Below, piece after piece: positions 17,902 to 58,648 of a DNA stretch of 64,000 nt (the stretch's first letter is position 1; the number at the start of each line of letters is the position of its first letter). Position numbers and translations under genes: made by a program. The notes below the pieces were generated by a model, which ran no database searches, was not told where the DNA came from, and saw only the letters and a list, made by a program, of their open reading frames with translations. The stretch is from Herbiconiux oxytropis (lineage in GTDB: Bacteria > Actinomycetota > Actinomycetes > Actinomycetales > Microbacteriaceae), in assembly GCF_024979315.1 (NCBI RefSeq), contig NZ_JANLCK010000002.1, positions 496,001 to 560,000 of the forward strand. Reading direction: 5' to 3'.

Positions 17902-18843
17902 TCAGTACGCCAGCGCCGCCCGCTCCATCCGCCCCGACGACTCCCCCACGAGCGACGGATCCCGCGGATCCAGCCGCAGCACCTCCGTGCCGTCGGCGAG
18001 CGCGTCCATCCCGATCCAGAACACGCTCGGGCTCTCCGTGGCCCCGAAGTAGTAGTAGCGATTCGTGAGGTCGGCGCCCGCGTGCCACCAGGTGGGGTAG
18101 ACCCCGCCGTCGTCGTAAGGCGCGCCGAAGGGCACCGACACGTTCGAGATGAGCTGGAACACCCGCGCCACGGCCTGCTCGGCGGTGTCGGGCTGGGGCA
18201 GGTGATGCAGGAAGTAGGAGGCGCGCACGAACCGGTCGCTCGAGGTGATGTCGCCGGGCGGAGGCAGCTCGCCGCCGAAGGAGCGGTAGCGCTTCAGGTT
18301 CTGCAGCTGCAGGTCGAGGGCGGGCGAGTTGGCCATGACCGTGAACTCCCGGCCGTGGTGCACCACCAGACGCCCGTCGAGCGGCTCGATCACCGCGGAA
18401 TCGCCGCCGGCGTCTTCGAGGGCGATGTGGATCCCGAGCTCCTGACCGCGGAACAGCGGCGACGTGATCCGGATCTCATCGACCCGCGCCACCGCCTCGG
18501 CCACCGTGGCGAAGTTGTCGAGCAGGTACTGCACCCAGAGAGCGTTCGCCACGGCGGGCCGCCCGTCGGCGTCGGGGAACGACACGTCCTCGGGGTTCAG
18601 GTAGAGCGCGTGCGCCGCGAAACCCTTCTCGTTCATCCCGTCGACCGTGCCGACGCCCCACATGCTCACGACCACGCTCGAGTAGGTCGAGGTCCAGTCC
18701 AGTGCCTCCGGATCGGGCCCGCCGGTGCGCGCTGTCCCACGCGGCACGAACCACAGCTCGGGCTCGTCGCTCACCGCCCAGTCCATGCATCTGCTCACAG
18801 CTTTGGCGCCGTCGCCACGATTCCAGAAGATCCGAGTGCACAT
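17902..18843 (-). CDS. Linear amide C-N hydrolase, choloylglycine hydrolase family
   Basis: A 313-residue Ntn-hydrolase. The mature nucleophile would be Cys2 (MCTRIFWN) after removal of Met1. Conserved positions include Arg18, Asp21 in SRCMDWA, and an Asn in GMNEKGFAAHALYL. Members hydrolyse bile-salt, penicillin V or N-acyl-homoserine-lactone amides. The substrate cannot be deduced, and quorum quenching is one possibility. The start follows TAGCAT by 6 nt. A perfect 16-bp palindrome lies 40 nt upstream, suggesting repressor control. Confidence 0.85.
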   Translation of the reverse strand: MCTRIFWNRGDGAKAVSRCMDWAVSDEPELWFVPRGTARTGGPDPEALDWTSTYSSVVVSMWGVGTVDGMNEKGFAAHALYLNPEDVSFPDADGRPAVANALWVQYLLDNFATVAEAVARVDEIRITSPLFRGQELGIHIALEDAGGDSAVIEPLDGRLVVHHGREFTVMANSPALDLQLQNLKRYRSFGGELPPPGDITSSDRFVRASYFLHHLPQPDTAEQAVARVFQLISNVSVPFGAPYDDGGVYPTWWHAGADLTNRYYYFGATESPSVFWIGMDALADGTEVLRLDPRDPSLVGESSGRMERAALAY

Positions 18844-20516: not shown

Positions 20517-21101
20517 ATGATCCCGAAGCGCAGTGCGATGAGCAGGGCAGCCAGGGCGGGAGGAACGGTCGCCGTGGCGGCGGCGCTCCTCACGGCGAGC
20601 GGATGCGCCGCCGAGGCCGAGGCGCCCGGCACCCAGGCGGGCGCATCGCCGATCGCGTCTCCGACGGCCACCAGCACCCCGACGCCCGATCCGACCGCTC
20701 TGGCCGAAGCGGCTGCTGCGGCCGACGAGGCGCTGCTTCCCTTCGCCGCCGAGGAGATCCGCGAGTGGGCGCCGACCGCGGTGCCGAGCAGCGATTCCGA
20801 GGGCTTCGCCTCGGCCTTCTCGGGCTGGATGAGCGAGCACACGGCCAAGAACCACCGGAGCACCGACAACAGCGCAGAGGCGGGCTCCTACCTCGTGCAG
20901 ATCGCCTGCCGCGGCGAGGGCACGATCACGGTCGAGACGTCGACACTCGACGGTCAGCCCGCGTCGGATCCGGTCGTCTGCCGGAACAGCACGATCGCCT
21001 TCGACGCGACCACGCCCACCGAGGGTCTCGTGACCGAGCTCGCGCTCGACGGTGCGCCTACGATCTACGCGCTCTCGTTCCAGCACGCTCCCGCGGGCTA
21101 G
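20517..21101 (+). CDS. Putative lipoprotein
   Basis: A 194-residue protein with a lipoprotein signal (GGTVAVAAALLTASGCAAE, lipid Cys near residue 29). A Ser/Thr/Pro linker (SPIASPTATSTPTPDPT) is followed by a small globular domain containing two cysteines (QIACRGEGTI, PVVCRNSTI) that may form a disulfide. No known family was recognised. The ATG at 20517 follows TACCGT by 7 nt; ATG 20538 is an alternative. Its stop overlaps that of the convergent S9 peptidase gene by four bases. Confidence 0.75.
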   Translation: MIPKRSAMSRAARAGGTVAVAAALLTASGCAAEAEAPGTQAGASPIASPTATSTPTPDPTALAEAAAAADEALLPFAAEEIREWAPTAVPSSDSEGFASAFSGWMSEHTAKNHRSTDNSAEAGSYLVQIACRGEGTITVETSTLDGQPASDPVVCRNSTIAFDATTPTEGLVTELALDGAPTIYALSFQHAPAG

Positions 21102-23020
21102 GAGCCCGACCGGAGCGCCCCGCCCACCCCGAGCGCCCCGCCCACCCCGAGCGCCTCGGCGAGGAACGCCCGCATCGTCTGGATGAGCTCGAGCCGCGAC
21201 GACGCGCGGCGGTACTCATGCCCCTCGCCCTCGAGCTCGAGGTACGCCACGGGCCGATCCAACTCCCGCAGCGCCGCCACGATGCGGTGCGCCTCGCCGA
21301 TCGGCACGTTGCTGTCGAGCTCGCCGTGCACGACGAGCAGGGGCACGCGGATGCGCTCGGCCTGCTCGAGCGGCGAGATCGACCTGAGGAACTCCCGGTC
21401 GTCATGCGGATGCCCGTACTTCGTCACCGCGGCCGCCGCGATCCAGGGCTCCGTCTCCTCGTAGAAGTGCAGCAAATGCGACATGCCGCAGATGTCGACC
21501 CCCGCCGCGAAGACACCGGGGGTGAAGGCGAGGGCCGCGAGCGTGAGGTACCCGCCATACGACCGGCCGGTCACGGCGATGCGGTCGGGTGCCGCGACGC
21601 CGATCTCGACGAGGTGCCTGGCGGCAGCGGTCACGTCGTCGAACGCACCCTGCCGGCCGTGCACGTCGTCGGCGTGCACGAACTCGCGGCCGAAGCCCGA
21701 GGAGCCCCGCACGTTGGGCGCGAAGACGGCCACCCCCGAGGCCACGAGCGCCTGGTGCTGCGGGCTGAAGGTGGGCCGCTCCTGCGACTCCGGACCGCCG
21801 TGCAGGTGCAGCATCGCCGCTCCGGGCGTGGCGGGGGGCTCGGGCGAGCGCAGCAGCCACGGCCCGGTGGCGGAGGAGACGGCTGGGCTCTCGGGCACTC
21901 GATAGAGCCAACCGGTGATCTCGAGGCCATCGCGGGAGCGGTAGCGCTCGAGCGTGGGCACGACGAGCCGCACGGGGGGCAGCTCCGGCACGGCCGTCAC
22001 GCGGGTCCAGGCGAAGCCCGCCGTGTCGAGCCGCCAGAGCTCGCGCGGCCGCTGCGGCCCCTCCACCGCGAGCAGCACGCTGCTGCCGTCGCGGCTGAGC
22101 ACGGGGCTCGTGGCCACGGCACCGGGGAGACCGGGCACGGGCTCGGACCGCCCGCTCGCCGTGTCGTAGAGCTCGAGCTCGCTGCGCCCCTCCACGTTCC
22201 AGACGAGCAGCAGCATTCGGCCCTCGTCGTCGGCGTCGAGGGCCTCGAGCTCGGCGTCCGGCCGCTCGGCGAGCACGCGGGGCGGCCGCGACCAGTCGGC
22301 GGGGTCGACGGGGTAGGCGATCAGCTGATGCCTGGGCAGCCCCACCTCGGTGGCCGCGTAGACCATCCCAGGCGCCGACTCGCCGGGGGGCGAGGGGCGG
22401 ATGAAGGCCACCTCGGTGGCCCCGGTGGCCGGGCGCGGCATCACGGGGTGGTCGTCGTCGCTCTCCCTGTCGACGACCACGCAGAACTCGTGCCCGCGCG
22501 GGCCATCGCGCATCACGAGCATGCGCTCGTGGGCCGAGAGGTCGAGCACGTGGATGAGGTCGCCCACGGCGAGCAGGTCGAGCTCTCCGGATGCGGGGTC
22601 GGCCAGGTACGCGCGCGTGGGCTCGCCGGCCTCGCTCGCGGGAACGGTCACGACCACGCGATGCCCGCTCCTCGTCCACGGCCCCAGCTCGGCGTGCCGC
22701 TCGCGTGGGCCCGAGACGCGCTTGGCGTCGCTGCCGTCGGGCCGCACGACCCAGACCTGGGTGCGCACGCCGCCGTCGGTCGCCACGGCACAGGCGAGCC
22801 AGGCGCTGTCGGCCGACCAGCTCACCGCGATCACCGGGTCGTCGCCGAACGACACCCGCCTGGCCTCGGGCAGGTCGGTCGCGCCCGGCGCGGGCACATC
22901 CTGCACCCAGACCTCGGGCGAGCCGCCGCGGTCGCTGATGAACGCCACCCGGTCGGCATCCGGGGTCATCGACGGCCCCCAGCTGCCCCAGGCGGCCACG
23001 AGCTGCTCGGCGAGGCTCAT
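21098..23020 (-). CDS. S9 family serine peptidase (prolyl oligopeptidase-like)
   Basis: A 640-residue two-domain enzyme: an N-terminal WD/TolB-like propeller (about 1-370) and a C-terminal alpha/beta-hydrolase. The catalytic Ser is in GRSYGGY, the Asp in HGELDSNVP and the His in GEGHEYRR. Such enzymes cut short peptides. ATG at 23020 overlaps the stop of the upstream amidotransferase (ATGA), so it is the last gene of the amidoligase cassette and is likely to process or recycle the cassette's peptide product (inference). The C-terminus carries a GVGGAL duplication coded by 18-bp repeats. Confidence 0.9.
   Translation of the reverse strand: MSLAEQLVAAWGSWGPSMTPDADRVAFISDRGGSPEVWVQDVPAPGATDLPEARRVSFGDDPVIAVSWSADSAWLACAVATDGGVRTQVWVVRPDGSDAKRVSGPRERHAELGPWTRSGHRVVVTVPASEAGEPTRAYLADPASGELDLLAVGDLIHVLDLSAHERMLVMRDGPRGHEFCVVVDRESDDDHPVMPRPATGATEVAFIRPSPPGESAPGMVYAATEVGLPRHQLIAYPVDPADWSRPPRVLAERPDAELEALDADDEGRMLLLVWNVEGRSELELYDTASGRSEPVPGLPGAVATSPVLSRDGSSVLLAVEGPQRPRELWRLDTAGFAWTRVTAVPELPPVRLVVPTLERYRSRDGLEITGWLYRVPESPAVSSATGPWLLRSPEPPATPGAAMLHLHGGPESQERPTFSPQHQALVASGVAVFAPNVRGSSGFGREFVHADDVHGRQGAFDDVTAAARHLVEIGVAAPDRIAVTGRSYGGYLTLAALAFTPGVFAAGVDICGMSHLLHFYEETEPWIAAAAVTKYGHPHDDREFLRSISPLEQAERIRVPLLVVHGELDSNVPIGEAHRIVAALRELDRPVAYLELEGEGHEYRRASSRLELIQTMRAFLAEALGVGGALGVGGALRSGS
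21113..21148. repeat. 18-bp tandem duplication in the S9 peptidase 3' end
   Basis: Two identical 18-bp units GAGCGCCCCGCCCACCCC code for duplicated GVGGAL residues at the peptidase C-terminus. Confidence 0.85.
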
Positions 23021-24807
23021 CGGACTCCGTGCTCCTGCAGCCACATCTCCAGCAGCGCGAGCTGCCAGAGGGCGTTCGAGCCGAGGGTCGTGCGGGTGGT
23101 GTTGGGATCGGCGAGGAGGGTCTCGACGGTCGCCTCGTCGAAGAGCGCGCGCTCGCGGGCGACCGGATCGGTGAGGGCGGCGCGCACGCGTTCGAGATAG
23201 GGCCCCTCGAGCTGGCGGATGGCGGGCACCGGGAAGTAGCCCTTCGTGCGGTCGATCACCTCGTCGGGCACGATTCCGCGGCTCGCGCGCTTGAGCACGC
23301 CCTTGCCGCCGTCGCTGAGCTTCAGCTCGGGCGGGATCGCGGCCACGAGCTCCACGAACTCGTGGTCGAGAAAGGGCACCCGCGCCTCGAGCCCCCACGC
23401 CATCGTCATGTTGTCGACGCGCTTCACCGGATCGTCGACGAGCATGACCGTGGTGTCGTTGCGGAGCGCGGCATCCACGGCCGTCTCCGCGCCGGGCTCG
23501 GCGAACCGGCGGCGGATGAAGGCCGTCGGAGCGTCGACCGGCGCTCCCTCGAGCCAGGCCGGGTTCAGCAGCCGGGTGAGCTCGGGCCAGCGCCGGTCGA
23601 AGAACACCTGCGAGTACGCCTCGACGGCGTCGCCCCGAGCGACCCCGGCGAGCGGCGGGTACCAGTCGTAGCCGCCGAGCACCTCGTCGGCGCCCTGGCC
23701 CGACTGCACCACCTTGACCGACTTCGAGACGTCCTCCGAGAGCAGGTGGAAGGCCACGCAGTCGTGGCTGACCATCGGCTCGCTCATCGCGGAGACCGTG
23801 GCGTCGATGCCCGGCAGCAGTCTCGAGCTGTCGATCGGGATGCGGTGGTGGTCGGTGCCGAAGCGCTCGGCCACGAGGCTCGAGTATTCGAACTCGTCGC
23901 CCGACTCACCTCCGGCCGAGCCGAAGCCGATGCTGAAGGTCTGCAACCCGCTCTGCCCGGCCTCGGCCAGCAGTGCCACCACGAGGCTGGAGTCGATGCC
24001 GCCCGAGAGCAGCACGCCCACGGGCACGTCGGAGACCATGCGGCGCTCGACCGCGGTGCGGAGGCTCGCGATCACCGCCTCCTGCCAGTCCCGGTCGCTC
24101 CACCCGGCCCGCGAGGGGTCGCGCTCGAAGTCGGCCCGCCAGTACACGTGCTCGGTCGAGGAGCCGTCGGGCTCGATCAGGCGCACGGTCGCGGGCGGCA
24201 GCTTGCGCACCCCCGCGAGGATGGTGAGGGGTGCGGGCACCACGGAGTGGAAGGTCAGGTAGTGCTGCAGCGCCTCACGGTCGATCGAGGTGTCGACGCC
24301 TCCACCCTCCAGCAGTGCGGGGAGGGTGGAGGCGAAACGGATGCGGCCGCCGCCCTCGACGAGGTAGAGCGGCTTGATGCCGAGGCGGTCGCGGGCGAGC
24401 ATCGCGCGGCCCGAGGCGTGCTCGACGATCGCGAATGCGAACATGCCGAGCAGGTGGCTCACGCAGTCCATGCCCCACTCGGCATACGCCTTGCCGATGA
24501 CCTCGGTGTCGGAGGTCGAGAAGAAGCGGTGCCCCTTGCCCTCGAGCTCGGCGCGGAGCTCCCGGTGGTTGTAGATGCAGCCGTTGAAGGCGATCGTGAG
24601 GCCGAGCACCGGGTCGACCATGGGCTGGGCGCCGGCGGCGCTCAGGTCGATGATCGAGAGCCGACGGTGCCCGAGGGCGGCGGGTCCGTTCGACCACAGG
24701 CCCGTGCCGTCGGGCCCCCGATGGCGCTGACAGGCGGTCATGCGATCGACGGCGCCGAGGTCGGCGCTCGACCCGTCGAACCGGAGCTCACCGGCGAATC
24801 CGCACAT
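23017..24807 (-). CDS. Asparagine-synthase-type amidotransferase, N-acetylglutaminylglutamine amidotransferase-like
   Basis: A 596-residue class II glutamine amidotransferase. Cys2 is the glutaminase nucleophile (MCGFAGELRFDG), and the synthetase PP-loop is SGGIDSS. The N-terminus and the AQPMVDPVLGLT / FNGCIYNHREL segments look more like the AsnO amidotransferase of NAGGN osmolyte synthesis than housekeeping AsnB. It would amidate a carboxylate of a small peptide using glutamine and ATP. The start lies 1 nt after the upstream amidoligase stop with GAGGAGG as ribosome-binding site, and the stop overlaps the S9 peptidase start. The exact substrate is inferred from context only. Confidence 0.87.
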   Translation of the reverse strand: MCGFAGELRFDGSSADLGAVDRMTACQRHRGPDGTGLWSNGPAALGHRRLSIIDLSAAGAQPMVDPVLGLTIAFNGCIYNHRELRAELEGKGHRFFSTSDTEVIGKAYAEWGMDCVSHLLGMFAFAIVEHASGRAMLARDRLGIKPLYLVEGGGRIRFASTLPALLEGGGVDTSIDREALQHYLTFHSVVPAPLTILAGVRKLPPATVRLIEPDGSSTEHVYWRADFERDPSRAGWSDRDWQEAVIASLRTAVERRMVSDVPVGVLLSGGIDSSLVVALLAEAGQSGLQTFSIGFGSAGGESGDEFEYSSLVAERFGTDHHRIPIDSSRLLPGIDATVSAMSEPMVSHDCVAFHLLSEDVSKSVKVVQSGQGADEVLGGYDWYPPLAGVARGDAVEAYSQVFFDRRWPELTRLLNPAWLEGAPVDAPTAFIRRRFAEPGAETAVDAALRNDTTVMLVDDPVKRVDNMTMAWGLEARVPFLDHEFVELVAAIPPELKLSDGGKGVLKRASRGIVPDEVIDRTKGYFPVPAIRQLEGPYLERVRAALTDPVARERALFDEATVETLLADPNTTRTTLGSNALWQLALLEMWLQEHGVR

Positions 24808-24808
24808 C

Positions 24809-27424
24809 TCAGACCTCCTCGGCCGGATCGCGATCTGCCGCGGAGTCGGCCTCCGGCGCCACGATCCAGGTGTCCTTGGCCCCGCCGCCGCGCGACGAGT
24901 TGACGACCATGCTCCCGGCGGGTGCCACCCGGGTGAGCGCGAGCGGGGCCACCACGAATCCGTCGGGCGACCCGGGGGAGGCGTAGACGAACACGCGCAG
25001 GTCGACGTGCCGCGGTTCGAGCACGCCCCCGCGGGCCCCGTCGATCCCGGCTCCGGCCTCGGACGGGGTGGCCCGCGAGAACGTCGGATGCGACGACAGC
25101 GGCACGACCTCCTGCGCCACCCAGGCGTCGGGGTCGGCGGCGATGGCGGCCCGGCGCTCGGCCACCACGGCGGCGCCGGCCGCGGGGCCGATCAGCACGC
25201 CCTCGCCGCCGTGCCCGTCGACAGGCTTCGTCACGAGCTCGCCCACCCGCTCGAGCACGGCCCGCCGCTCCGCCTCGTCGCTCGTGCGATAGGTGGGCAC
25301 CTGCTCGAGCAGCTGACGCTCGTCGAGGTAGTAGCCGATCAGGGTGGGCACGTTGCAGTACATCGCCTTGTCGTCGGCCACGCCGTTGCCCGGCGCGTTC
25401 GCGAGGCGCACGTGGCCGGCGGCGGCCACCTGCATGATCTGCTCGCCGATCCGGGCGCCGCGCGAGTCCACGGCATCCGGGAGCTCGTCGTCGAGGCGCA
25501 GGTAGAGCGCGTCGAGGGGTGTGCCTGTCGCGGTCTCGACCACCCGCCCGTCCGAGATCCCCACGTCGTCGAGGGCGAGCAGCTGGAGCCCGGCTCCCGC
25601 CGCGAGCGCGCGGTGCTCGAACCACGCGCCGCTCGCGGGGCCCGAGGAGAGCAGGGCTGCGGGGCCAGGAGCGGACCCGGCCGACCCGCCCGCCGAGAGC
25701 GCTCTGCGCAGGAGGTCGAAGGTGCCGCCTGGTGTGAGCATCCGCTCCGGTCGCGGCACGCCGGGCGCCACCTCGTCCATGAGCGACCGGATGGCGATCG
25801 CGTACGCGGCGCCGCTGGGATTCCGCAGGTTGTCCTCGAGCACCCGCCAGCCGCCGAACTCGTTGCGCACGAGGTCGAAGCCGATGACGGCCGAGCGGAG
25901 AGTCCCCGCCGGGAGCGCTCGCCCGCCCTCATGCCAGCCGGGCGCCCCCTCGACGGTGCGGCGCGGGATCACCCCGTCGCGCAGGATCCGCTGCTCGCCG
26001 TAGACGTCGCCGAGGAACGCCTCGAGCGCACGGGCGCGCTGCAGCACCCCCGCGCTGATGGCCGCCCACTCGTGGCTGTTGAGCACGCGGGGCACGAGGT
26101 CGACGGCGAAGGGGCGCGGGCCGTCGTCGGCGGCGAAGGTGAGCTCGTGGCCGGCGATCCAGGTCTCGGCGGCGCTCAGCCGCTCGGCCACGAGCCCGTC
26201 GGGGAGGCTCTCGAAGTAGCCCACGATCTCCTCGTAGGCGGGCCGGGGGCGCGATCCCGGCCCCACGGCCTCGTCGCCTGCGCGGCTCGGGTAGGTGCGG
26301 AGGGCCGGCACGGCGGGCGGGATTCCCGACGCCGGGCCCTGGGTCTCCTCCACCACGAGCTTCACCACCGCGGCGAGCTCGCCGCGTTCGGCGAATGCGG
26401 CCCGCTGGCGATCGGACGAGTTGCCGCGCGCGAGGAGCGTCGAGGCGAGCTCCACCACCTCGTCGTAGTCGCCCAGCTCCTCGAGCTGGGGCCGCAGGCG
26501 CCGGATGAGATGGCGCACCGCGTGCGCGGCGGCCGTGGGGCGCGGATGCCGGGTGTCGTCGAGCAGGTCGCCGGTGAGCCCGCTCCGCGCGGCCTGCCAC
26601 ATGGCGGCGCGGTGGATGGGCTCGGCGACGGGAGCGAGCGGCCGGCCCGCCTCGATGTCGAGCTCGGCGGCACGCACGCTCGCCCGGAACAGTCCGGCGA
26701 TGAGCACGGCGTCGTCGACGATGGGGCAGGCATCGCACACGCGGAGCTCGAGGGTGGGGGCGTGCGACGAGGGGCGCACCTCGAAGTACGCCATCTTCGA
26801 ATCGGCGATGACCCCCGTGGCGATGAGGTCGCCGAGCAGCTCGTCGTACTCGGCCGCGCTCGAGAGCGGGCCCGTGGAACCGGCGCTCGGCCAGCGCTGC
26901 CAGATGATCGAACGGATGCTGGAGTATCCCGTGTCGGCACCGTTCCAGTAGGGAGAGCTCGCTGAGAGGGCGAGCAGCACGGGCAGGTCGCGGGAGACCC
27001 GCTGGGCGATGTCGACGGCGAGGTCGCGATCCGAGACGCCGACGTGGATCTGGGTGCCGCAGATGAGCTGCTCGTCGACGAGCATCCGGTACTGCTCCTG
27101 CATGCGGCCGTAGCGGCCGGTGCTCGTGAGCTCGAAGTCGGCGAACTCCGAGCGCGGGGCGGTGCCGACGCACGCGATCCCGATGCCGTCGGGTGACGCG
27201 GCGTCGATCACGCCCTTCCGCAGTCGCAGCAGCTCCCGCCTCAGCCCGTCGAGGCTCGCGACCACGTCGGTGTTCGTCTCGACCGTCGTGCGCTGGATCT
27301 CGGCCGAGTAGCTGCCGGCCGGCAGCCTCGACAGGATCTGCGGCGCCCGCGCCGAGAGCTTCCCGCTCTCGAGATCGATCAGGTGGAGCTCTTCTTCCGC
27401 GCCCAGCGTCAACTCCGCAGCCAT
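24809..27424 (-). CDS. GCS2-type carboxylate-amine ligase fused to circularly permuted ATP-grasp
   Basis: An 871-residue fusion. Residues about 1-375 form a glutamate-cysteine-ligase type 2 domain (LGAEEELHLID at the start, CGTQIHVGVSDRD, THELRV-like TLELRVCDA). Residues about 420-871 form a circularly permuted type 2 ATP-grasp (VLEDNLRNPSGAAYA, TKPVDGHGGEGV, NSSRGGGAKDTWI). Both halves make amide bonds from carboxylates using ATP, so the protein could build a short non-ribosomal peptide. ATG at 27424 follows TAGGGT by 7 nt; a longer GTG start at 27469 is less likely. It leads the cassette with the amidotransferase and S9 peptidase. Confidence 0.88.
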   Translation of the reverse strand: MAAELTLGAEEELHLIDLESGKLSARAPQILSRLPAGSYSAEIQRTTVETNTDVVASLDGLRRELLRLRKGVIDAASPDGIGIACVGTAPRSEFADFELTSTGRYGRMQEQYRMLVDEQLICGTQIHVGVSDRDLAVDIAQRVSRDLPVLLALSASSPYWNGADTGYSSIRSIIWQRWPSAGSTGPLSSAAEYDELLGDLIATGVIADSKMAYFEVRPSSHAPTLELRVCDACPIVDDAVLIAGLFRASVRAAELDIEAGRPLAPVAEPIHRAAMWQAARSGLTGDLLDDTRHPRPTAAAHAVRHLIRRLRPQLEELGDYDEVVELASTLLARGNSSDRQRAAFAERGELAAVVKLVVEETQGPASGIPPAVPALRTYPSRAGDEAVGPGSRPRPAYEEIVGYFESLPDGLVAERLSAAETWIAGHELTFAADDGPRPFAVDLVPRVLNSHEWAAISAGVLQRARALEAFLGDVYGEQRILRDGVIPRRTVEGAPGWHEGGRALPAGTLRSAVIGFDLVRNEFGGWRVLEDNLRNPSGAAYAIAIRSLMDEVAPGVPRPERMLTPGGTFDLLRRALSAGGSAGSAPGPAALLSSGPASGAWFEHRALAAGAGLQLLALDDVGISDGRVVETATGTPLDALYLRLDDELPDAVDSRGARIGEQIMQVAAAGHVRLANAPGNGVADDKAMYCNVPTLIGYYLDERQLLEQVPTYRTSDEAERRAVLERVGELVTKPVDGHGGEGVLIGPAAGAAVVAERRAAIAADPDAWVAQEVVPLSSHPTFSRATPSEAGAGIDGARGGVLEPRHVDLRVFVYASPGSPDGFVVAPLALTRVAPAGSMVVNSSRGGGAKDTWIVAPEADSAADRDPAEEV

Positions 27425-50845: not shown

Positions 50846-50899
50846 GTTTACCTGCGCGAAATGTTCACTCTTTTTTCTGTTACCTCCGGCACCTAGCAT
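50846..50899 (+). promoter_or_regulatory. AT-rich promoter region with three GTT(N)ACC-like motifs
   Basis: GTTTACC (50846), GTTCACT (50863) and GTTACC (50879) are spaced 16-17 bp, followed by a TAGCAT -10-like box at 50894-50899. The mRNA leader would run about 31 nt, with TAGGAGAG before the ATG. The motifs resemble actinobacterial PHO-box half-sites, which would suit a phosphate-scavenging enzyme, but the spacing differs from the classic 11 bp. Confidence 0.35.
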
Positions 50900-50936
50900 G
50901 ACCAGATCCGTGTGATCCGCCAGCTGTAGGAGAGTC

Positions 50937-53900
50937 ATGTTCAAATCCCCCACGAGAACCGTGAAAGCGGCTCTCGCGTCGATTCTGGGAGGGGCGCTCA
51001 TCGCGACCCCGCTGGTCGGAGTCGTGTCGTCCGCGTCCGCCAGTGTCGACGGCACCGGTGTCGTGATCAACGAGGTCTACTCCAAGGGCGGGTCGGCGAA
51101 CGCCCCGTTCAACAAGAAGTTCGTCGAGCTCTACAACCCGGGTGACAGCGCCGTCTCCCTCGACGGCTGGTCGCTGCAGTACCGCTCGAGCGGCGGAACC
51201 GCGGCCGCGAACGGTGTCGCACCCCTCTCGGGCAGCATCGCTGCCGACAGCTACTTCCTGGCTCAGATCAACGGCAACGGCGAGGTGGGTGCGGCCCTGC
51301 CGACGCCCGACATCGACCTCGGGGGCGCTCTCAACCCCTCCGGAACGAACGGAACGCTCTACCTCGCCTCGACCACCACGGCGCTGACGCTGCCCGTGGG
51401 CGCGGTCGCAACCGGCACCGAGGGCGTCGTCGACCTCATCGGGTTCGGCACCTCCAACACCTTCGAGGGAGCGGTCGTCGCGACCGTCGGCGCCAACGGG
51501 GTGCCGAACTCCCTCAACCGCACGGGCTTCGCCGACAGCGACAACAACGCGGCCGACTTCGTGACGAGCGACACGGTCACCCCGCAGAGCTCCGGCGGAA
51601 CGACCGAGCCGGAGCCGACGCCCACGCCGACCCCCACGGACACCCCCGAGCCCACCCCGACGCCCACCGAGACCCCGGCGCCAGGCACCACCACAGCGAT
51701 CCCGGAGATCCAGGGATCCGGACCCGCGAGCCCCCTCGTCGGGCAGACCGTCTCGGCGCTCGGCGTCGTGACCGCGGCCTACGGCACCGGCGGCTTCAAC
51801 GGCTACTACATCCAGGCACCCGGCACCGGCGGCGCGATCGACCTCGCGACCCACACGGCCTCCGACGCCATCTTCGTCTACTCGCCTTCGACGGCCGCCT
51901 CCGTGCAGGTCGGCGACTACGTCTCGGTGACCGGTGCGGTGAGCGAGTACTTCGACCTCACCCAGATCACGGTCACGAACGCCGCCGGGCTGCAGAAGCT
52001 CGACGCGTCGACCGTCGAGGCCCCCACCCCCGCCGTGGTCGGGCTGCCGGCCGATGCCGCCGAGCGTGAGTCGCTCGAGGGCATGCTCGTCGCCCCCCAG
52101 GGCGGCTTCACGGTGAGCAACACCTACAGCACCAACCAGTACGCCGAGATCGGACTGGCCGCGGGTGACTCCCCGCTGATCACGCCCACCGAGATCGCGC
52201 GCCCCGGCACCCCCGAGTACGACAGAGCGGTGGCCGACAACGCGGCCCGCGCCGTGACGCTCGACGACGGCGCCACGACCAACTTCCTGAGCAACGCCAA
52301 CAAGGGCATCGCGCTGCCGTTCCTCACCCAGAACCCGGCGATCACCGTCGGCTCCTCGGTGGCGTTCACGGCTCCCGTGATCTTCGACTACCGCAACAGC
52401 GCCTGGAAGTTCCAGCCCACCACCCAGCTCACCGCCGAGGGCACGCTGCCCGCCACCTTCACCGACGTGCGCCAGCCGCAGCCGGAGGACGTGGGCGGCC
52501 AGGTGGCCATCGCGAGTTTCAACGTGCTCAACTACTTCACCACCACGGGTGACCAGCTCACCGGCTGCACCTACTACACCGACCGCGCGGGCAACCCGAT
52601 CACCGTCAACCGGGGCTGCGACGCCCGCGGCGCGGCGAACGCCGAGAACCTCGCCCGCCAGCAGGCCAAGATCGTCGCGGCCATCACCGGCCTCGGCGCC
52701 GATGTCGTGGCACTCGAGGAGATCGAGAACTCGGCCCGCTTCGGCGACGACCGCGACGCGGCCCTCGGCACGCTCGTGGGCGCGCTCAACACGGCCGAGG
52801 GTGCCGAGGAGTGGGCCTTCGTGCCTTCTCCGGACGCAGCGTCCCTGCCCGCGAGCGAGGACGTCATCCGCACCGCCTTCATCTACAAGAAGGCCGCCGT
52901 GGAGCCCGTCGGCGCCTCGCACGTGCTCGTCGACACCGCGTTCTCCAACGCCCGGGCGCCGCTCGCCCAGGAGTTCAAGGCCGCCGGCGGCAGCGACGAC
53001 GAGACCTTCATCGCCATCGTGAACCACCTCAAGTCGAAGGGCGACAGCGATCCGCCCGCCACGGGTGACAACGCCAACGGCATCCAGGGCGCCTTCAACG
53101 GCGACCGCACCCGCCAGGCCGCTGCGCTCCTCGAGTTCGCGGCCGAGCTCCAGACCGAGCTCGGCACGACCGACGTCTTCCTGATCGGAGACTTCAACTC
53201 CTACACGCAGGAGGACCCGTCGGTCGCGATCCAGGAGGCCGGCTACGTCGACCAGGGATCCAAGACCGGCAGCTACACCTACTCCTTCAGCGGCCAGAGC
53301 GGTTCGCTCGACCACGTCTACGCCTCGGCCTCGGCCGACGCCAAGATCACCGGTGCCGACGTCTGGAACATCAACTCGGGAGAGTCGATCGCCAAGGAGT
53401 ACAGCCGGTTCAACTACAACCTGACCGACTTCTACTCGCCCGACGTCTACCGCTCGAGCGACCACGATCCGGTCATCGTCGGCTACGACTTCGGCGCCGC
53501 CGCGGCCGAGCCCGTCGACATCAACCTGATCGACATCAACGACTTCCACGGCCGCATCGACGCCAACACGGTGAAGTTCGCCGGAACGGTCGAACAGCTC
53601 AAGGCGGAGAACGAGAACTCGCTCTTCGTCTCGGTCGGTGACAACATCGGCGCCTCGCTCTTCGCGTCGAGCGTGGCTCAGGACCAGCCGACCATCGATG
53701 TGCTCAACGCGCTCGGCCTCACCGCGAGCGCCGTGGGCAACCACGAGTTCGACCAGGGCTACGCCGACCTCCGCGACCGCGTGATCGGCGCCGAGGGCGC
53801 TCGCAACGCCGAATGGGACTACCTGGGCGCGAACGTGTACCTCAAGGGCACCCAGACCCCCGCTCTGCAGGAGTACTCGATCCAGGAGGTCGACGGCCTC

Positions 53901-56900
53901 CGCGTGGCCATGATCGGCGCGATCACCGAGGAGACGCCCACACTGGTCTCGCCAGGTGGAATCGCCGACCTCGACTTCGGCGACCCCGTCGACGCCGTGA
54001 ACCGCGTGACCGCTCAGCTGACCGACGGTGACGAGTCCAACGGTGAGGCCGATGTCATCATCGCGTCGTACCACGAGGGCGCGGGCGCCGGCGTCGTCGA
54101 GGGCTCGACCCTCGAGGAGGAGCTCGCCGCCGGCGGCGAGTTCGCCGAGATCGTGAACGAGACCTCGCCCGAGGTCTCGGCCATCTTCACCGGCCACACC
54201 CACAAGCAGTACGCGTGGGATGCACCGATCCCCGGCACCGACGCCACGCGCCCGGTGCTCCAGACCGGCAACTACGGCGAGTTCGTGGGCCAGGTCGTGC
54301 TCACGGTCGACGGCGAGACCGGTGACCTCGAGAGCTACACGGCCAAGAACGTCGCCCGCAGCACCGCCTCCGACGCCACCCTCGTGGCGGCCTACCCGGC
54401 CGTCGCCGAGGTGAAGCAGATCACGGATGCGGCGCTCGCCTCCGCGGCCGAGATCGGCAACCAGCCCAAGGGCTCGGTGACCGCCGACATCACCTCGGCG
54501 TTCAGCGGCGGCTCCTACGTCGACGGGAAGTACACCGGCGGCACGCGCGACAACCGCGCCGCGGAGTCGGCCCTCGGCAACCTCGTGGCCGACTCGCTCG
54601 TCTCGTCGCTCAGCTCCCCGGAGCGCGGTGGTGCCGAGATCGGCGTCGTCAACCCCGGTGGCCTCCGCGCGGAGCTGCTCTTCGCGGCCGACACCCGCAC
54701 CAACCCGGCCAACACCGACGGTGTCATCACCTACGCCGAGGCCAATGCGGTGCTGCCGTTCGTGAACAACCTGTGGACCACGTCGCTCACGGGTGCGCAG
54801 TTCAAGACGGTGCTCGAGCAGCAGTGGCAGACGGATGCGGCCGGCAACGTGCCGTCGCGCCCGTTCCTGAAGCTCGGTCTCTCGGACAACGTGACCTACA
54901 CGTTCGACGCCGACCGCGCCGCGGGCGACCGCGTCACGAGCATCTGGATCGACGGCGCGCCGATCGATTCGGCCGCCTCCTACCGGATCGGCTCGTTCAA
55001 CTTCCTGCTGCAGGGAGGCGACAACTTCCGTGAGTTCGCCAAGGGCTCGGACACCCGCGACTCCGGTCTCGTCGACCGCGACGCGTGGATCGCGTACCTC
55101 GAGGCGAACCCCGGTCTGACCCCTGACTTCGGTCGCGGTGCGGTCGAGGTCACCGATCTCGTGAACACCGACCTGGAGCTCGGCGACGTGTTCTCGGCTC
55201 GTGTCGAGGGTCTCGACCTGACCTCGCTCGGCAGCCCGGCGAACACCACGATCACCGCGACCTGGGAGGGTTCCGCGGCCACGTTCGAGGAGCTCGAGGT
55301 CACGGGCGGCGCCGTCTCGGTCTCGCTCACGGTTCCCGCCGACGCGCCCTACGGCGCCGGTGCGGTCATCCTCACGGCTCAGCCGAGCGGCACCGAGGTG
55401 CGCATCCCGGTGACGGTCGCGGCTCCCGAGCTGCAGGACATCAACCTGATCGACATCAACGACTTCCACGGTCGGATCGATGGCAACACGGTCGAGTTCG
55501 CCGGCACGATCGAGCAGCTCCGCGCGGCGCACGGCGAGGAGAACTCGCTGTTCGTCTCGGTGGGCGACAACATCGGCGCCTCGCTGTTCGCGTCGAGCGT
55601 GGCTCAGGACCAGCCCACGATCGACGTGCTGAACGCACTCGGCCTCACCGCGAGCGCCGTGGGCAACCACGAGTTCGACCAGGGCTACGCCGACCTCGTC
55701 GATCGCGTGATCGGTGCGGACGACGCCCGGAACGCCGAGTGGGACTACCTGGGTGCCAACGTGTACCTCAAGGGCACCGCGACCCCGGCGCTCGACGAGT
55801 ACTCGCTGCAGCAGGTCGGCGACCTCACCGTCGCCGTGATCGGTGCGGTGACGCAGGAGACCCCGACGCTCGTCTCGCCCGGCGGCATCGCCGACCTCGA
55901 CTTCGGCGACCCGGTCGAGGCGGTCAACCGCGTCACCGCTCAGCTGACCGACGGCGACGAGTCCAACGGTGAGGCCGATGTCATCATCGCGTCGTACCAC
56001 GAGGGCGCGGGCGCGGGCATCGTCGAGGGCTCGACCCTCGAGGCGGAGCTCGCCGAGGGCGGTGCGTTCGCGAAGATCGTGAACGAGACCTCGCCCGAGG
56101 TCGCGGCCATCTTCACCGGCCACACCCACAAGCAGTACTCGTGGGACGCCCCGGTCCCCGGCGTCGAGGGCAAGACCCGCCCCGTGCTCCAGACCGGCAA
56201 CTACGGCGAGAACATCGGCAACGTCGTGCTCTCGGCCGACCCGGCCACGGGTGAGGTGATGAGCTACACGGCTCAGAACGTCGCCCGCACCACGGTCGCC
56301 GAGGCCGAGCTCGTGTCGACGTACCCCCGCGTGGCGGAGGTCAAGCAGATCACGGATGCGGCCATCGCGGCGGCAGCGCTGATCGGCAACCAGCCCAAGG
56401 GCTCGGTGACCGCCGACATCACGACCGCCTACGCGGGCGGCTCGTTCGTCGACGGGACGTACACGGGCGGAACGCGGGACGACCGCGCGAGCGAGTCGGC
56501 TCTCGGCAACCTGATCGCCGACTCCCTGGTCAGCTCGCTGAGCTCCGAGGAGCGCGGCGGGGCCGAGATCGGCGTCGTGAACCCGGGCGGCATCCGTGCC
56601 GAGCTGCTGTTCAAGGGCGACACCACCACCAACCCGGCCAACACCGACGGTGTCATCACCTACGCCGAGGCCAACGCGGTGCTGCCGTTCGTGAACAACC
56701 TGTGGACGACCTCGCTCACGGGCGCGCAGTTCAAGACGGTGCTCGAGCAGCAGTGGCAGACGGATGCGGCGGGCAACGTGCCGTCGCGCCCGTTCCTGAA
56801 GCTCGGCCTCTCGGACAACGTGCAGTACACCTTCGACGCATCGCGCATCGCCGGTGACCGCGTCACGGGGATCTTCATCGACGGGGAGCCCATCGTGGCC

Positions 56901-58592
56901 GACCAGTCGTACCGGATCGGTTCGTTCAACTTCCTGCTGCAGGGAGGCGACAACTTCCGTGAGTTCGCCAAGGGCTCGGACACCCGCGACTCGGGTCTCG
57001 TCGACCGCGACGCGTGGATCTCGTACCTCGAGGCGAACCCGGGCCTCACGCCCGAGTTCGACCGCAAGGCCGTGACGGTGACGAACACGCCCGCCGCTCC
57101 GGTGGAGCTCGGTTCCACGGTGACCTTCGACGTGTCGGGTCTCGACCTGACCTCGCAGGGAAGCCCGCAGAACACCACGCTGACCGCATCCTGGACCGGA
57201 TCGGCCGCGACGTTCGAGCCGATCACCGTCACGAACGGCGCCGCCTCGGTGTCGCTGACCGTGCCGGCCGACGCCTTCGCCGCGAGCGAGATCGTGCTGA
57301 CCGCCGCCCCCAGCGGCACCAGCGTGATCGTGCCCGTGCAGGTGCTGAACGGTCTGCCCCCCGTGCCCGAGGAGCCTACGATCCCGCCGGTGACCGTGCC
57401 GGAGGAGTCGCTGCCGGACGACGTGAAGGGTGACATCTCGATCGGTGTCGACGTCACGAAGCCCGGCGCCACGCTCTCGGTGTTCGTGGGAGTCGAGCAC
57501 GCCAACCAGTGGGTCTCCGTGGTCGCGTACTCCGAGCCCCGTCAGCTCGGCGGCTGGCAGCTCGTGGCCGCCGACGGCACGGTCACGGTGACCCTGCCTG
57601 CCGACCTGCCGGCGGGTGAGCACAAGATCGCCGTGCTCACCGAGACCGGCGAGGTGCTCGGCTGGGTCGAGTTCGAGGTCACCGACCTCGGCATCGAGGT
57701 CGACCGCATCGGCGGAGCCGACCGCTACGAGGTCGCGGTGAACACCTCCAAGGAGGGCTTCCCCGAGGGTGCCGACACGGTCTACCTCAGCTCCGGCCAG
57801 GTCTTCCCCGACGCCCTCTCCGCGGCTCCCGCCGCGGCGCTGGCCGACGGGCCGATCCTGCTCACCACCGCTGCCACGGTGCCCGCCGCGGTGCGAGCAG
57901 AGATCGAGCGGCTCGATCCGACGAACATCGTGATCGTCGGTGGCACCAGCTCGGTGAGCAACCGCGTGGTGATCGAGCTCGCAGCCCTCGGAAAGGTCAG
58001 CCGCATCGGTGGCGCCGACCGCTACGAGGCTTCGCGCAACGTCGCGGCGCGCACCTTCCCCGACGGAGCAGACGTGGCGGTGCTCGCCACCGGCAGCACC
58101 TTCGCCGACGCACTGTCGGCGGGAGCCGCCATCGACGGCGCCGGCCCGGTCATCCTGGTGAAGGGCACGGCGGGCCAGCTCGACGAGGCCACCACCCTGC
58201 TGCTCGAGGAGCTCGACGTCTCGGAGATCGTGATCGCGGGAGGACCGGCATCGGTCTCGCCCGGCATCGCGTCCGACGCCGGCAAGATCGCCACCACGGT
58301 CCGCCTCGGCGGAGTCGACCGCTACGAAGCGTCGCGTTCGATCAACGCGCACTTCTTCGAGTCGGCCGACCGCGTGCTCCTGGCCACCGGCCAGAAGTTC
58401 GCCGACGCCCTCACCGGTTCGGCGTTCGGTCCGCGGATCGACGCCCCGCTGTTCACCACCCGTGGTGACTGCGTGCCGGCGGAGACCCTCGATGCGATCC
58501 TCGAGCTCGGCGCCACGCGCGTGACGCTGCTCGGCGGTCCGGCCTCGCTCACGGTGGCGGTCGAGGACCTCACCACCTGCGGCGTCGGCTAG
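50937..58592 (+). CDS. Giant secreted nuclease / tandem 5'-nucleotidase with cell-wall-binding repeats
   Basis: A 2551-residue modular protein. It has a signal peptide (to about 36, ending SASA) and a lamin-tail domain (about 38-210). A Pro/Thr linker and an OB-fold region follow. Next is an ExeM/NucH-type nuclease (about 520-855: FNVLNYF, ALEEIEN, NHLKSKG, IGDFNSY, SSDHDPV). Two UshA-like 5'-nucleotidase modules follow (about 860-1500 and 1500-2140), each with DINDFHGRID, GDNIGAS, GNHEFDQG and GHTHKQY. Three cell-wall-binding type 2 repeats end the protein (from about 2255, 2355 and 2455; RIGGADRYE). It should degrade extracellular DNA to nucleosides and phosphate at the cell surface. Confidence 0.93.
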   Translation: MFKSPTRTVKAALASILGGALIATPLVGVVSSASASVDGTGVVINEVYSKGGSANAPFNKKFVELYNPGDSAVSLDGWSLQYRSSGGTAAANGVAPLSGSIAADSYFLAQINGNGEVGAALPTPDIDLGGALNPSGTNGTLYLASTTTALTLPVGAVATGTEGVVDLIGFGTSNTFEGAVVATVGANGVPNSLNRTGFADSDNNAADFVTSDTVTPQSSGGTTEPEPTPTPTPTDTPEPTPTPTETPAPGTTTAIPEIQGSGPASPLVGQTVSALGVVTAAYGTGGFNGYYIQAPGTGGAIDLATHTASDAIFVYSPSTAASVQVGDYVSVTGAVSEYFDLTQITVTNAAGLQKLDASTVEAPTPAVVGLPADAAERESLEGMLVAPQGGFTVSNTYSTNQYAEIGLAAGDSPLITPTEIARPGTPEYDRAVADNAARAVTLDDGATTNFLSNANKGIALPFLTQNPAITVGSSVAFTAPVIFDYRNSAWKFQPTTQLTAEGTLPATFTDVRQPQPEDVGGQVAIASFNVLNYFTTTGDQLTGCTYYTDRAGNPITVNRGCDARGAANAENLARQQAKIVAAITGLGADVVALEEIENSARFGDDRDAALGTLVGALNTAEGAEEWAFVPSPDAASLPASEDVIRTAFIYKKAAVEPVGASHVLVDTAFSNARAPLAQEFKAAGGSDDETFIAIVNHLKSKGDSDPPATGDNANGIQGAFNGDRTRQAAALLEFAAELQTELGTTDVFLIGDFNSYTQEDPSVAIQEAGYVDQGSKTGSYTYSFSGQSGSLDHVYASASADAKITGADVWNINSGESIAKEYSRFNYNLTDFYSPDVYRSSDHDPVIVGYDFGAAAAEPVDINLIDINDFHGRIDANTVKFAGTVEQLKAENENSLFVSVGDNIGASLFASSVAQDQPTIDVLNALGLTASAVGNHEFDQGYADLRDRVIGAEGARNAEWDYLGANVYLKGTQTPALQEYSIQEVDGLRVAMIGAITEETPTLVSPGGIADLDFGDPVDAVNRVTAQLTDGDESNGEADVIIASYHEGAGAGVVEGSTLEEELAAGGEFAEIVNETSPEVSAIFTGHTHKQYAWDAPIPGTDATRPVLQTGNYGEFVGQVVLTVDGETGDLESYTAKNVARSTASDATLVAAYPAVAEVKQITDAALASAAEIGNQPKGSVTADITSAFSGGSYVDGKYTGGTRDNRAAESALGNLVADSLVSSLSSPERGGAEIGVVNPGGLRAELLFAADTRTNPANTDGVITYAEANAVLPFVNNLWTTSLTGAQFKTVLEQQWQTDAAGNVPSRPFLKLGLSDNVTYTFDADRAAGDRVTSIWIDGAPIDSAASYRIGSFNFLLQGGDNFREFAKGSDTRDSGLVDRDAWIAYLEANPGLTPDFGRGAVEVTDLVNTDLELGDVFSARVEGLDLTSLGSPANTTITATWEGSAATFEELEVTGGAVSVSLTVPADAPYGAGAVILTAQPSGTEVRIPVTVAAPELQDINLIDINDFHGRIDGNTVEFAGTIEQLRAAHGEENSLFVSVGDNIGASLFASSVAQDQPTIDVLNALGLTASAVGNHEFDQGYADLVDRVIGADDARNAEWDYLGANVYLKGTATPALDEYSLQQVGDLTVAVIGAVTQETPTLVSPGGIADLDFGDPVEAVNRVTAQLTDGDESNGEADVIIASYHEGAGAGIVEGSTLEAELAEGGAFAKIVNETSPEVAAIFTGHTHKQYSWDAPVPGVEGKTRPVLQTGNYGENIGNVVLSADPATGEVMSYTAQNVARTTVAEAELVSTYPRVAEVKQITDAAIAAAALIGNQPKGSVTADITTAYAGGSFVDGTYTGGTRDDRASESALGNLIADSLVSSLSSEERGGAEIGVVNPGGIRAELLFKGDTTTNPANTDGVITYAEANAVLPFVNNLWTTSLTGAQFKTVLEQQWQTDAAGNVPSRPFLKLGLSDNVQYTFDASRIAGDRVTGIFIDGEPIVADQSYRIGSFNFLLQGGDNFREFAKGSDTRDSGLVDRDAWISYLEANPGLTPEFDRKAVTVTNTPAAPVELGSTVTFDVSGLDLTSQGSPQNTTLTASWTGSAATFEPITVTNGAASVSLTVPADAFAASEIVLTAAPSGTSVIVPVQVLNGLPPVPEEPTIPPVTVPEESLPDDVKGDISIGVDVTKPGATLSVFVGVEHANQWVSVVAYSEPRQLGGWQLVAADGTVTVTLPADLPAGEHKIAVLTETGEVLGWVEFEVTDLGIEVDRIGGADRYEVAVNTSKEGFPEGADTVYLSSGQVFPDALSAAPAAALADGPILLTTAATVPAAVRAEIERLDPTNIVIVGGTSSVSNRVVIELAALGKVSRIGGADRYEASRNVAARTFPDGADVAVLATGSTFADALSAGAAIDGAGPVILVKGTAGQLDEATTLLLEELDVSEIVIAGGPASVSPGIASDAGKIATTVRLGGVDRYEASRSINAHFFESADRVLLATGQKFADALTGSAFGPRIDAPLFTTRGDCVPAETLDAILELGATRVTLLGGPASLTVAVEDLTTCGVG
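53516..57340 (+). repeat. Tandem duplication of the 5'-nucleotidase module (about 1.92 kb)
   Basis: The second module starts about 1920 bp after the first, with long stretches identical at DNA level, for example around 54988-55080 and 56929-57020. The offset changes to 1926 bp after a two-codon insertion early in the module. Confidence 0.88.
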
Positions 58593-58606
58593 CCCGACCC
58601 GCACCA

Positions 58607-58648
58607 CGGAAGAGCCGTCCGTCCTTCAGGGGCCGGGCGGCTCTTCCG
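58607..58648 (+). terminator. Hairpin after the giant nuclease gene
   Basis: Perfect 11-bp stem CGGAAGAGCCG / CGGCTCTTCCG, 15 bp after the stop. Confidence 0.75.

What the first reader, a model, noticed from the sequence alone, without database searches (positions are those of the whole stretch)
21098..27424. Variant NAGGN-like amidoligase cassette
Three translationally coupled genes code for a GCS2/ATP-grasp fusion, an AsnO-like glutamine amidotransferase and an S9 peptidase. In the known N-acetylglutaminylglutamine amide osmolyte pathway an AsnO-type enzyme works with an acetyltransferase/ATP-grasp enzyme. Here that partner is replaced by a protein with two different amide-forming catalytic domains, so the product may be an undescribed short peptide amide. 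Related gene sets have been noted in comparative studies of amidoligases, but I know of no assigned product for this arrangement.
Basis: partly seen in the sequence, partly recalled or inferred. Interest (0 to 1): 0.75.

Follow-up and report, generated by a model that had tools for sequence, protein, structure and literature searches.

The report
Osmolyte-type gene cassette with swapped ligase
Three linked genes look like a known bacterial recipe for a salt- and drought-protecting small peptide, except that the enzyme that joins the building blocks has been replaced by an unrelated two-part enzyme, so the bacteria probably make a related protectant that nobody has described.

Summary
On the minus strand, 27424-21098, lie a GCS2 + circularly permuted (CP) ATP-grasp fusion ("FUS"), an AsnO-type amidotransferase and an S9 peptidase, joined by a 1-nt gap and a 4-nt overlap. 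The amidotransferase is a full member of the NAGGN (N-acetylglutaminylglutamine amide) family TIGR03104 (935.8 bits, cut-off 570.1), far from other Asn synthase-like proteins. The canonical synthetase Ngg gave no match in this genome. FUS-AsnO-S9 order holds in 33 of 39 named full-length FUS loci. FUS-linked AsnO fall in one clade among Ngg-linked AsnO, with no group-wide specificity shift: 220 of 221 columns conserved in both carry the same residue. The peptidase is swapped together with the ligase (S9 for M42). Best reading: a NAGGN-like compatible-solute cassette with a replaced ligase, making a glutamine-ended peptide amide with a different N-terminal part, perhaps gamma-glutamyl-glutamine amide. 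Substrates, product and role are inferred. Against: in five genomes with FUS (or its split form) no AsnO was found, nine of 17 FUS genomes of the order also have Ngg, and the Ngg/FUS exclusion in Micromonospora rests on few evolutionary events. New variant of a known kind.

The parts
24809..27424 (-). FUS: GCS2 / circularly permuted ATP-grasp fusion ligase (871 aa)
   Evidence: Pfam PF04107, PF14403 and PF04174; 20-member alignment with strongly conserved blocks in both halves; nearest solved chains 3n6x, 1tt4, 1r8g
26336..27412 (-). GCS2 (YbdK-like carboxylate-amine ligase) domain
   Evidence: NF010041 at 355 bits over residues 20-377 of the 886-aa ORF; GxEEE, VExN, QxH and TxELR invariant in the 20-member alignment
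24923..26092 (-). CP ATP-grasp domain
   Evidence: PF14403 residues 460-849; LEDNxRxPSG, GNGxxDDK, KPxDGxGG and VNSSxGGGxKDTW invariant in all 20 members
23017..24807 (-). AsnO-type glutamine-dependent amidotransferase (596 aa)
   Evidence: TIGR03104 935.8 bits versus cut-off 570.1; the only Asn_synthase match at E 0.001 in its genome
21098..23020 (-). S9 family peptidase (640 aa), acylaminoacyl-peptidase-like
   Evidence: PF00326; the best solved chain is an amino acyl peptidase (5l8s) and acylamino-acid-releasing enzymes such as 1ve6 follow; ATGA overlap with AsnO

Best explanation
The cassette is a branch of the NAGGN (N-acetylglutaminylglutamine amide) compatible-solute system in which the dedicated synthetase Ngg (a GNAT acetyltransferase fused to an ATP-grasp ligase) has been replaced, in actinobacteria and probably once, by an unrelated GCS2 + CP ATP-grasp ligase. 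Proposed working: the GCS2 half uses ATP to put an N-terminal cap, most likely gamma-glutamyl, on glutamine; the CP ATP-grasp half joins a further residue where it is present; AsnO, in essence unchanged, turns the C-terminal carboxylate into an amide with glutamine as nitrogen donor; the S9 peptidase breaks the product down when it is no longer needed. Shown: gene anatomy, family membership of AsnO, conserved order, one clade of FUS-linked AsnO, no group-wide specificity shift in AsnO, joint change of ligase and peptidase. Inferred: substrates, product and osmotic role.
For: AsnO scores far above the TIGR03104 cut-off, and the family is well separated: hits over the cut-off go down to 644 bits, the next has 378. 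In the order, 17 of 149 genomes have full-length FUS and all 17 have AsnO, against 13 of the other 132 (the 17 fall in six genera). Of 28 named FUS genomes, 25 have AsnO over the cut-off and 0 have Ngg over the cut-off. FUS is followed by AsnO in 35 of 39 named loci and by AsnO then S9 in 33. The 55 FUS-linked AsnO rows fall in one clade of 63 (SH-aLRT 99) among Ngg-linked ones. Of 221 columns at least 90% conserved in both groups, 220 agree; two halves of the Ngg group differ at 1 of 248, two halves of the FUS group at 0 of 234. S9 lies within 3.5 kb of 51 of 55 FUS-linked AsnO rows and M42 of none; M42 lies near 20 of 48 Ngg-linked rows and S9 near none (three pairs of rows are identical). 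Five of the M42 proteins were scanned and all are the NAGGN-system peptidase TIGR03106. Frankiaceae cassettes add a small GNAT gene. Where FUS and Ngg share a genome, 7 of 9 FUS copies lack an AsnO of their own, as if one AsnO serves both. In Frankia alni the glutamine amidotransferase FRAAL1888, which its authors assign to NAGGN synthesis, rose 2.2-fold under PEG (PMC5768760, passages); that it belongs to a FUS cassette is inferred from other Frankiaceae loci.
Against: No product or enzyme activity is known. AsnO over the cut-off was not found in Herbiconiux moechotypicola, Subtercola boreus and a Corynebacterium MAG, in G456 (87% complete) and in G026, which has separate GCS2 and CP ATP-grasp genes plus S9. 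Nine of 17 FUS genomes of the order also have Ngg, so FUS does not simply stand in for it. Within Micromonospora all 13 FUS genomes lack Ngg and none of 56 Ngg genomes has FUS, but on a one-gene tree of 39 of the 81 genomes each trait needs only two changes, and the test of independent pairs says nothing. Between small clades AsnO does differ: the largest difference of all was FUS-linked versus Ngg-linked AsnO within Micromonospora, 79 of 404 columns, more than between any two clades with the same partner (at most 50 of 362). None of five window neighbours scanned is a GNAT or a known osmotic-stress protein.
Confidence: 0.6

Rival explanations
1. The cassette makes NAGGN itself: FUS is a non-homologous replacement for Ngg, with acetylation supplied in trans (or by the adjacent GNAT in Frankiaceae).
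For: AsnO shows no group-wide specificity shift; Frankiaceae cassettes carry a GNAT; Ngg and FUS were never found together in 81 Micromonospora genomes.
Against: Two ligase domains are more than NAGGN needs; Streptomyces-like and Microbispora cassettes keep the GCS2 part with AsnO and S9 but have no CP ATP-grasp part beside it, and GCS2 enzymes are known as gamma-glutamyl ligases (recalled); the peptidase changes with the ligase; nine genomes have both systems.
Confidence: 0.2
2. The AsnO gene simply makes asparagine, being the only Asn_synthase match found in the genome, and its neighbours are unrelated.
For: Only one PF00733 match in the window's genome.
Against: It scores as TIGR03104 far above the cut-off, while the eight other Asn synthase-like proteins used as outgroup score 335 to 372 bits with that model and lie far away in the tree; conserved coupling with FUS and S9; 119 of 149 genomes of the order have no such AsnO over the cut-off.
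Confidence: 0.05
3. The genes form a protein-tagging or cell-wall modification system of the CP ATP-grasp amidoligase kind, not a free osmolyte pathway.
For: CP ATP-grasp proteins also occur without FUS in many genomes, and comparative work has proposed peptide-tagging roles for such sets (Iyer et al. 2009, recalled; not held).
Against: FUS CP domains mostly group apart from 43 of 47 stand-alone CP ATP-grasp proteins in the domain tree; no further partner recurs in the neighbourhoods looked at, only AsnO and S9; AsnO is conserved as in the small-molecule NAGGN pathway.
Confidence: 0.12

Closest known systems
NAGGN pathway asnO-ngg (TIGR03104 / TIGR03103) with M42 peptidase (TIGR03106), studied in Sinorhizobium meliloti and Pseudomonas aeruginosa
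   Same: Same AsnO family; ligase, amidotransferase and peptidase in one cluster; lies close to FUS cassettes in some genomes (L077, L184, L187).
   Different: Ngg replaced by GCS2 + CP ATP-grasp; M42 replaced by S9; a GNAT gene was seen only in Frankiaceae cassettes.
YbdK / GCS2 carboxylate-amine ligases (1tt4, 1r8g)
   Same: N-terminal half of FUS: E 1.9e-31 to 1tt4 and 9.4e-31 to 1r8g.
   Different: Fused to CP ATP-grasp and linked to AsnO and S9.
CP ATP-grasp proteins (3n6x, 'putative glutathionylspermidine synthase'; PF14403)
   Same: C-terminal half of FUS: E 4.7e-71 to 3n6x.
   Different: FUS domains mostly branch apart from the stand-alone proteins.
Hydroxyamidotransferase 7ylz and AsnB 1ct9
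   Same: Same overall protein family.
   Different: Window AsnO belongs to TIGR03104.

Membership tests
NAGGN biosynthesis system | AsnO amidotransferase TIGR03104 over curated cut-off | tested here: met
   935.8 bits, cut-off 570.1
NAGGN biosynthesis system | Ngg synthetase TIGR03103 in the genome | tested here: not met
   No match at E 1e-5 in G000, 16 candidates scored
NAGGN biosynthesis system | M42-type hydrolase (TIGR03106) in the cluster | tested here: not met
   The cluster peptidase is S9 with no TIGR03106 match; a genome-wide search for M42 was not made
NAGGN biosynthesis system | Product N-acetylglutaminylglutamine amide | not testable with these tools
   Needs mass spectrometry
GCS2 / YbdK-type ligase | GCS2 domain over Pfam gathering score with conserved motif blocks | tested here: met
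   174.1 bits, cut-off 21; alignment of 20. Activity not tested
CP ATP-grasp | PF14403 over gathering score and conserved blocks | tested here: met
   341.4 bits, cut-off 32; alignment of 20. Activity not tested
Housekeeping asparagine synthetase | Clusters with other Asn synthase-like proteins in a tree | tested here: not met
   119 AsnO rows apart from 8 outgroup rows, SH-aLRT 100; the outgroup rows have no tested function

The most novel reading that the evidence does not exclude
Actinobacteria use a second, unrecognised class of amide osmolytes: gamma-glutamyl-glutamine amide (from GCS2 + AsnO alone, as in Streptomyces-like cassettes) and a longer form such as gamma-glutamyl-glutaminyl-glutamine amide (from the full fusion), N-acetylated in Frankiaceae. 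AsnO is then a general amidating module to which different ligases dock: Ngg, FUS, GCS2 alone or CP ATP-grasp alone.
Probability: 0.28. Interest if true: 0.75.

Novelty: new variant of a known kind. Interest (0 to 1): 0.56.

Why it matters
If right, genomes with this cassette carry an uncharacterised osmolyte system. The family model names its AsnO N-acetylglutaminylglutamine amidotransferase (TIGR03104), so annotation may credit these genomes with NAGGN; two Frankia papers assign NAGGN to Frankia genes that are probably of this kind (inferred from related genomes). The case is directly testable: the same AsnO with several ligase partners, two peptidases, and sister species within one genus (Micromonospora) that carry one ligase or the other.

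Tried and rejected
Tried and dropped: (1) Using Micromonospora exclusion as strong evidence. 13 of 81 genomes have FUS (12 full-length, G607 split over two frames), 56 of 81 have Ngg, none both (Fisher 1.4e-8 uncorrected). A tree of 39 of these genomes (one marker gene fetched from 40; G591 dropped because its gene was not orthologous) shows few events. (2) Proving that FUS makes NAGGN through Micromonospora provocatoris, which makes NAGGN (PMC8146288, abstract and passages). Most of the genus sample has canonical Ngg and the paper itself names asnO and ngg, so that strain says nothing about FUS. (3) Looking for further partners: the ten neighbours scanned and ten were of mixed, mostly unrelated kinds (such as a tRNA synthetase, BrkB, an epimerase, regulators), and window neighbours recurred only in Herbiconiux. 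(4) Claiming that Streptomyces-like genomes lack any CP ATP-grasp in trans: dropped, because only two candidates per genome were scored. (5) Promoter and terminator scan: one weak promoter-like site at 28856-28829, upstream of the glycosyltransferase gene, and no terminator-like site. (6) Sagot et al. 2010 and Iyer et al. 2009 are not held; what I say of them is recalled. I found no paper that assigns a product to this arrangement; searches: open-access library only, listings seen and passages read in seven papers (searches cover nine papers in all).
Full report
WHAT IS THERE. The three genes are real, intact and translationally coupled on the minus strand: FUS 27424-24809, AsnO 24807-23017, S9 23020-21098. 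One base separates the FUS stop from the AsnO start, and AsnO and S9 overlap by ATGA. FUS has a GCS2 domain and a circularly permuted (CP) ATP-grasp domain, both over their Pfam cut-offs, with conserved blocks kept in an alignment of 20 homologues. The nearest solved chains are YbdK-type proteins for the first half and 3n6x for the second. For S9 the best solved relative is an amino acyl peptidase; acylamino-acid-releasing enzymes follow.

THE AMIDOTRANSFERASE IS THE NAGGN ONE. The middle gene scores 935.8 bits with TIGR03104 (cut-off 570.1). In 396 genomes of the phylum, 46 have a match over the cut-off; the weakest has 644 bits and the next hit 378. It is the only Asn_synthase match found in the window's genome. 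In a tree of 127 rows the 119 AsnO rows stand apart from 8 other Asn synthase-like proteins of actinobacteria.

THE USUAL PARTNER IS MISSING. Ngg (TIGR03103) gives no match in the window's genome at 1e-5. Of 17 FUS genomes in the order, 9 have Ngg over the cut-off and 8 do not; three FUS genomes of another family (f55) do not, nor does a fourth, G456. Of 28 named FUS genomes none has Ngg over the cut-off. Of the 39 named full-length FUS loci, 30 were submitted for genome-wide search; two of these (L105, L110) are not held.

CONSERVATION. Full-length FUS occurs in 17 of 149 genomes of the order and 5 of 396 of the phylum sample. AsnO over the cut-off occurs in 30 of the 149, including all 17 FUS genomes, against 13 of the other 132. 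The 17 fall in six genera, so they are not independent. The named FUS loci come from a capped list: the best 80 of 577 relatives, from which 39 are full-length. Of these 39, 35 have AsnO next on the same strand (L109 and L128 with a gap of 1.5 to 2.5 kb) and 33 have FUS-AsnO-S9, one (L123) with S9 cut by the contig end and one (L132) with AsnO split over two frames. They include Amnibacterium, Glaciihabitans, Rathayibacter, Curtobacterium, Microbacterium, Actinoplanes, Micromonospora, Pseudonocardia, Streptosporangium and Williamsia. In the order, 10 of 17 are FUS-AsnO-S9 and 7 are FUS-S9. So the second refutation test does not refute.

ONE AsnO SERVES TWO LIGASES. All seven FUS-S9 loci of the order without their own AsnO lie in genomes with AsnO-Ngg; the other two genomes with both systems carry two AsnO copies. 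In L184 the order is AsnO-Ngg, two other genes, FUS-S9 and then the NAGGN-system M42 peptidase (490 bits with TIGR03106, cut-off 397.75); in L187 AsnO-Ngg-M42 lies about 8 kb from FUS-S9.

HISTORY. FUS-linked AsnO (55 rows, one pair identical), six GCS2-S9-linked ones and two without a ligase nearby form one clade (SH-aLRT 99) among Ngg-linked AsnO; the FUS label needs four changes against a shuffled mean of 41 ('quick' search and long outgroup branches, so the support is approximate). The GCS2 halves (29 of 67 FUS rows used) lie in one clade of 44 (99), inside which stand-alone GCS2 genes recur: a Streptomyces group, Microbispora, a Mycobacterium, G141 and a Streptosporangiales group. This suggests repeated loss of the CP ATP-grasp half; in the Streptomyces-like loci L060, L063, L064, L066 and in Microbispora L135 the gene stands beside AsnO and S9. 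The CP ATP-grasp halves mostly group apart from 43 of 47 stand-alone proteins; one FUS, L123, falls on the other side, and four stand-alone rows fall among FUS.

SPECIFICITY. Of 221 AsnO columns at least 90% conserved in both FUS-linked (61 rows, GCS2-S9 type included) and Ngg-linked (47 rows) sets, 220 have the same residue. Controls of the same kind: two halves of the Ngg set differ at 1 of 248, two halves of the FUS set at 0 of 234. Between small clades 4 to 20% of such columns differ; the highest value is FUS-linked versus Ngg-linked within Micromonospora (79 of 404, 6 and 8 rows), above the highest same-partner value (50 of 362), while FUS versus Ngg in the other four comparisons (9 to 34 columns, 4 to 11%) is within the same-partner range. 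So there is no group-wide sign of a new acceptor, but a local one is not excluded. By contrast the peptidase changes with the ligase: S9 lies within 3.5 kb of 51 of 55 FUS-linked rows and M42 of none; M42 near 20 of 48 Ngg-linked rows and S9 near none. The rest of the Ngg rows have neither within reach, some at contig ends. My inference: same C-terminal part (glutamine to be amidated), different N-terminal part.

FRANKIACEAE. Parafrankia colletiae (L175) and Frankia gtarii (L176) have FUS-AsnO-S9 followed by a 141-aa GNAT acetyltransferase; Pseudofrankia (L116/L177, one genome) has FUS-AsnO and a GNAT relative without S9. No relative of this GNAT was found in the other loci searched. A paper on Casuarina Frankia reports AsnO over 60% identical to known ones, an 'Ngg' under 15% identical, and a dipeptidase between them (PMC5563000, passages). 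That fits AsnO-S9-GNAT, though I could not check those strains, and the same passage also places a dipeptidase downstream of ngg. In Frankia alni the amidotransferase FRAAL1888 rose 2.2-fold under PEG (PMC5768760, passages).

MICROMONOSPORA. All 81 genomes sampled have AsnO over the cut-off, 56 have Ngg, 13 have FUS, none has both. Uncorrected Fisher p is 1.4e-8, but a one-gene tree of 39 of them needs only two changes of each trait, and the test of independent pairs is uninformative. M. provocatoris makes NAGGN but is reported to carry asnO and ngg (PMC8146288, abstract and passages).

AGAINST. AsnO over the cut-off was not found in Herbiconiux moechotypicola, Subtercola boreus, a Corynebacterium MAG, G456 and G026 (split form). 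Herbiconiux has the named FUS most similar to the window's (73%) and keeps the neighbouring MFS gene, but a LuxR-family regulator stands where AsnO and S9 would be. So FUS may have a use without AsnO, or these are remnants. No product is known.

MECHANISM. The parallel I propose: in Ngg a GNAT caps the N-terminus and an ATP-grasp makes the peptide bond; in FUS a GCS2 domain caps (gamma-glutamyl) and a CP ATP-grasp makes a further bond; AsnO amidates in both. That GCS2 enzymes make gamma-glutamyl bonds is recalled. Uncharged glutamine amides are known osmolytes: NAGGN and N-carbamoylglutamine amide (PMC1224877, passage); a gamma-glutamyl product would instead be zwitterionic unless capped. Confidence 0.6 for a NAGGN-like amide cassette with replaced ligase, about 0.28 for the gamma-glutamyl product.

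VERDICT. Observation confirmed, interpretation partly supported, new variant of a known kind.

Noticed in passing
50937-58592 (+): A 2551-aa ORF with lamin-tail, endonuclease/phosphatase, metallophosphatase, 5'-nucleotidase and cell-wall-binding-2 domains, probably a surface nuclease-nucleotidase; the long antisense ORF 50880-58607 has no family match.
   Followed up: partly
17902-18843 (-): A choloylglycine-hydrolase-family amide hydrolase (PF02275) a few genes from the cassette; no relative in the FUS and AsnO loci searched.
   Followed up: partly
L173 2122-5595, L174 7628-11203: Micromonospora noduli and parva have a second AsnO facing a convergent GCS2 gene, preceded by a 143-aa gene that is MarR-family in L173; no Ngg match in these genomes.
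   Followed up: partly
L052, L054, L058; L074; L180: AsnO next to a CP ATP-grasp alone (three loci of family f34; in L054 over two ORFs) or next to a divergent GCS2 alone (L074, L180), with no Ngg nearby.
   Followed up: partly
L208 (G620): FUS-AsnO with a GCS2 gene on the opposite strand right after AsnO, where S9 would be expected: a hybrid of two arrangements.
   Followed up: no
L092 10001-16599: Herbiconiux moechotypicola keeps FUS and the window's MFS neighbour but has a LuxR-family regulator in place of AsnO and S9.
   Followed up: partly
20520-21101 (+): An ORF that begins like a lipoprotein (by eye), convergent with S9, between it and the MFS gene; no relative in the loci searched.
   Followed up: no
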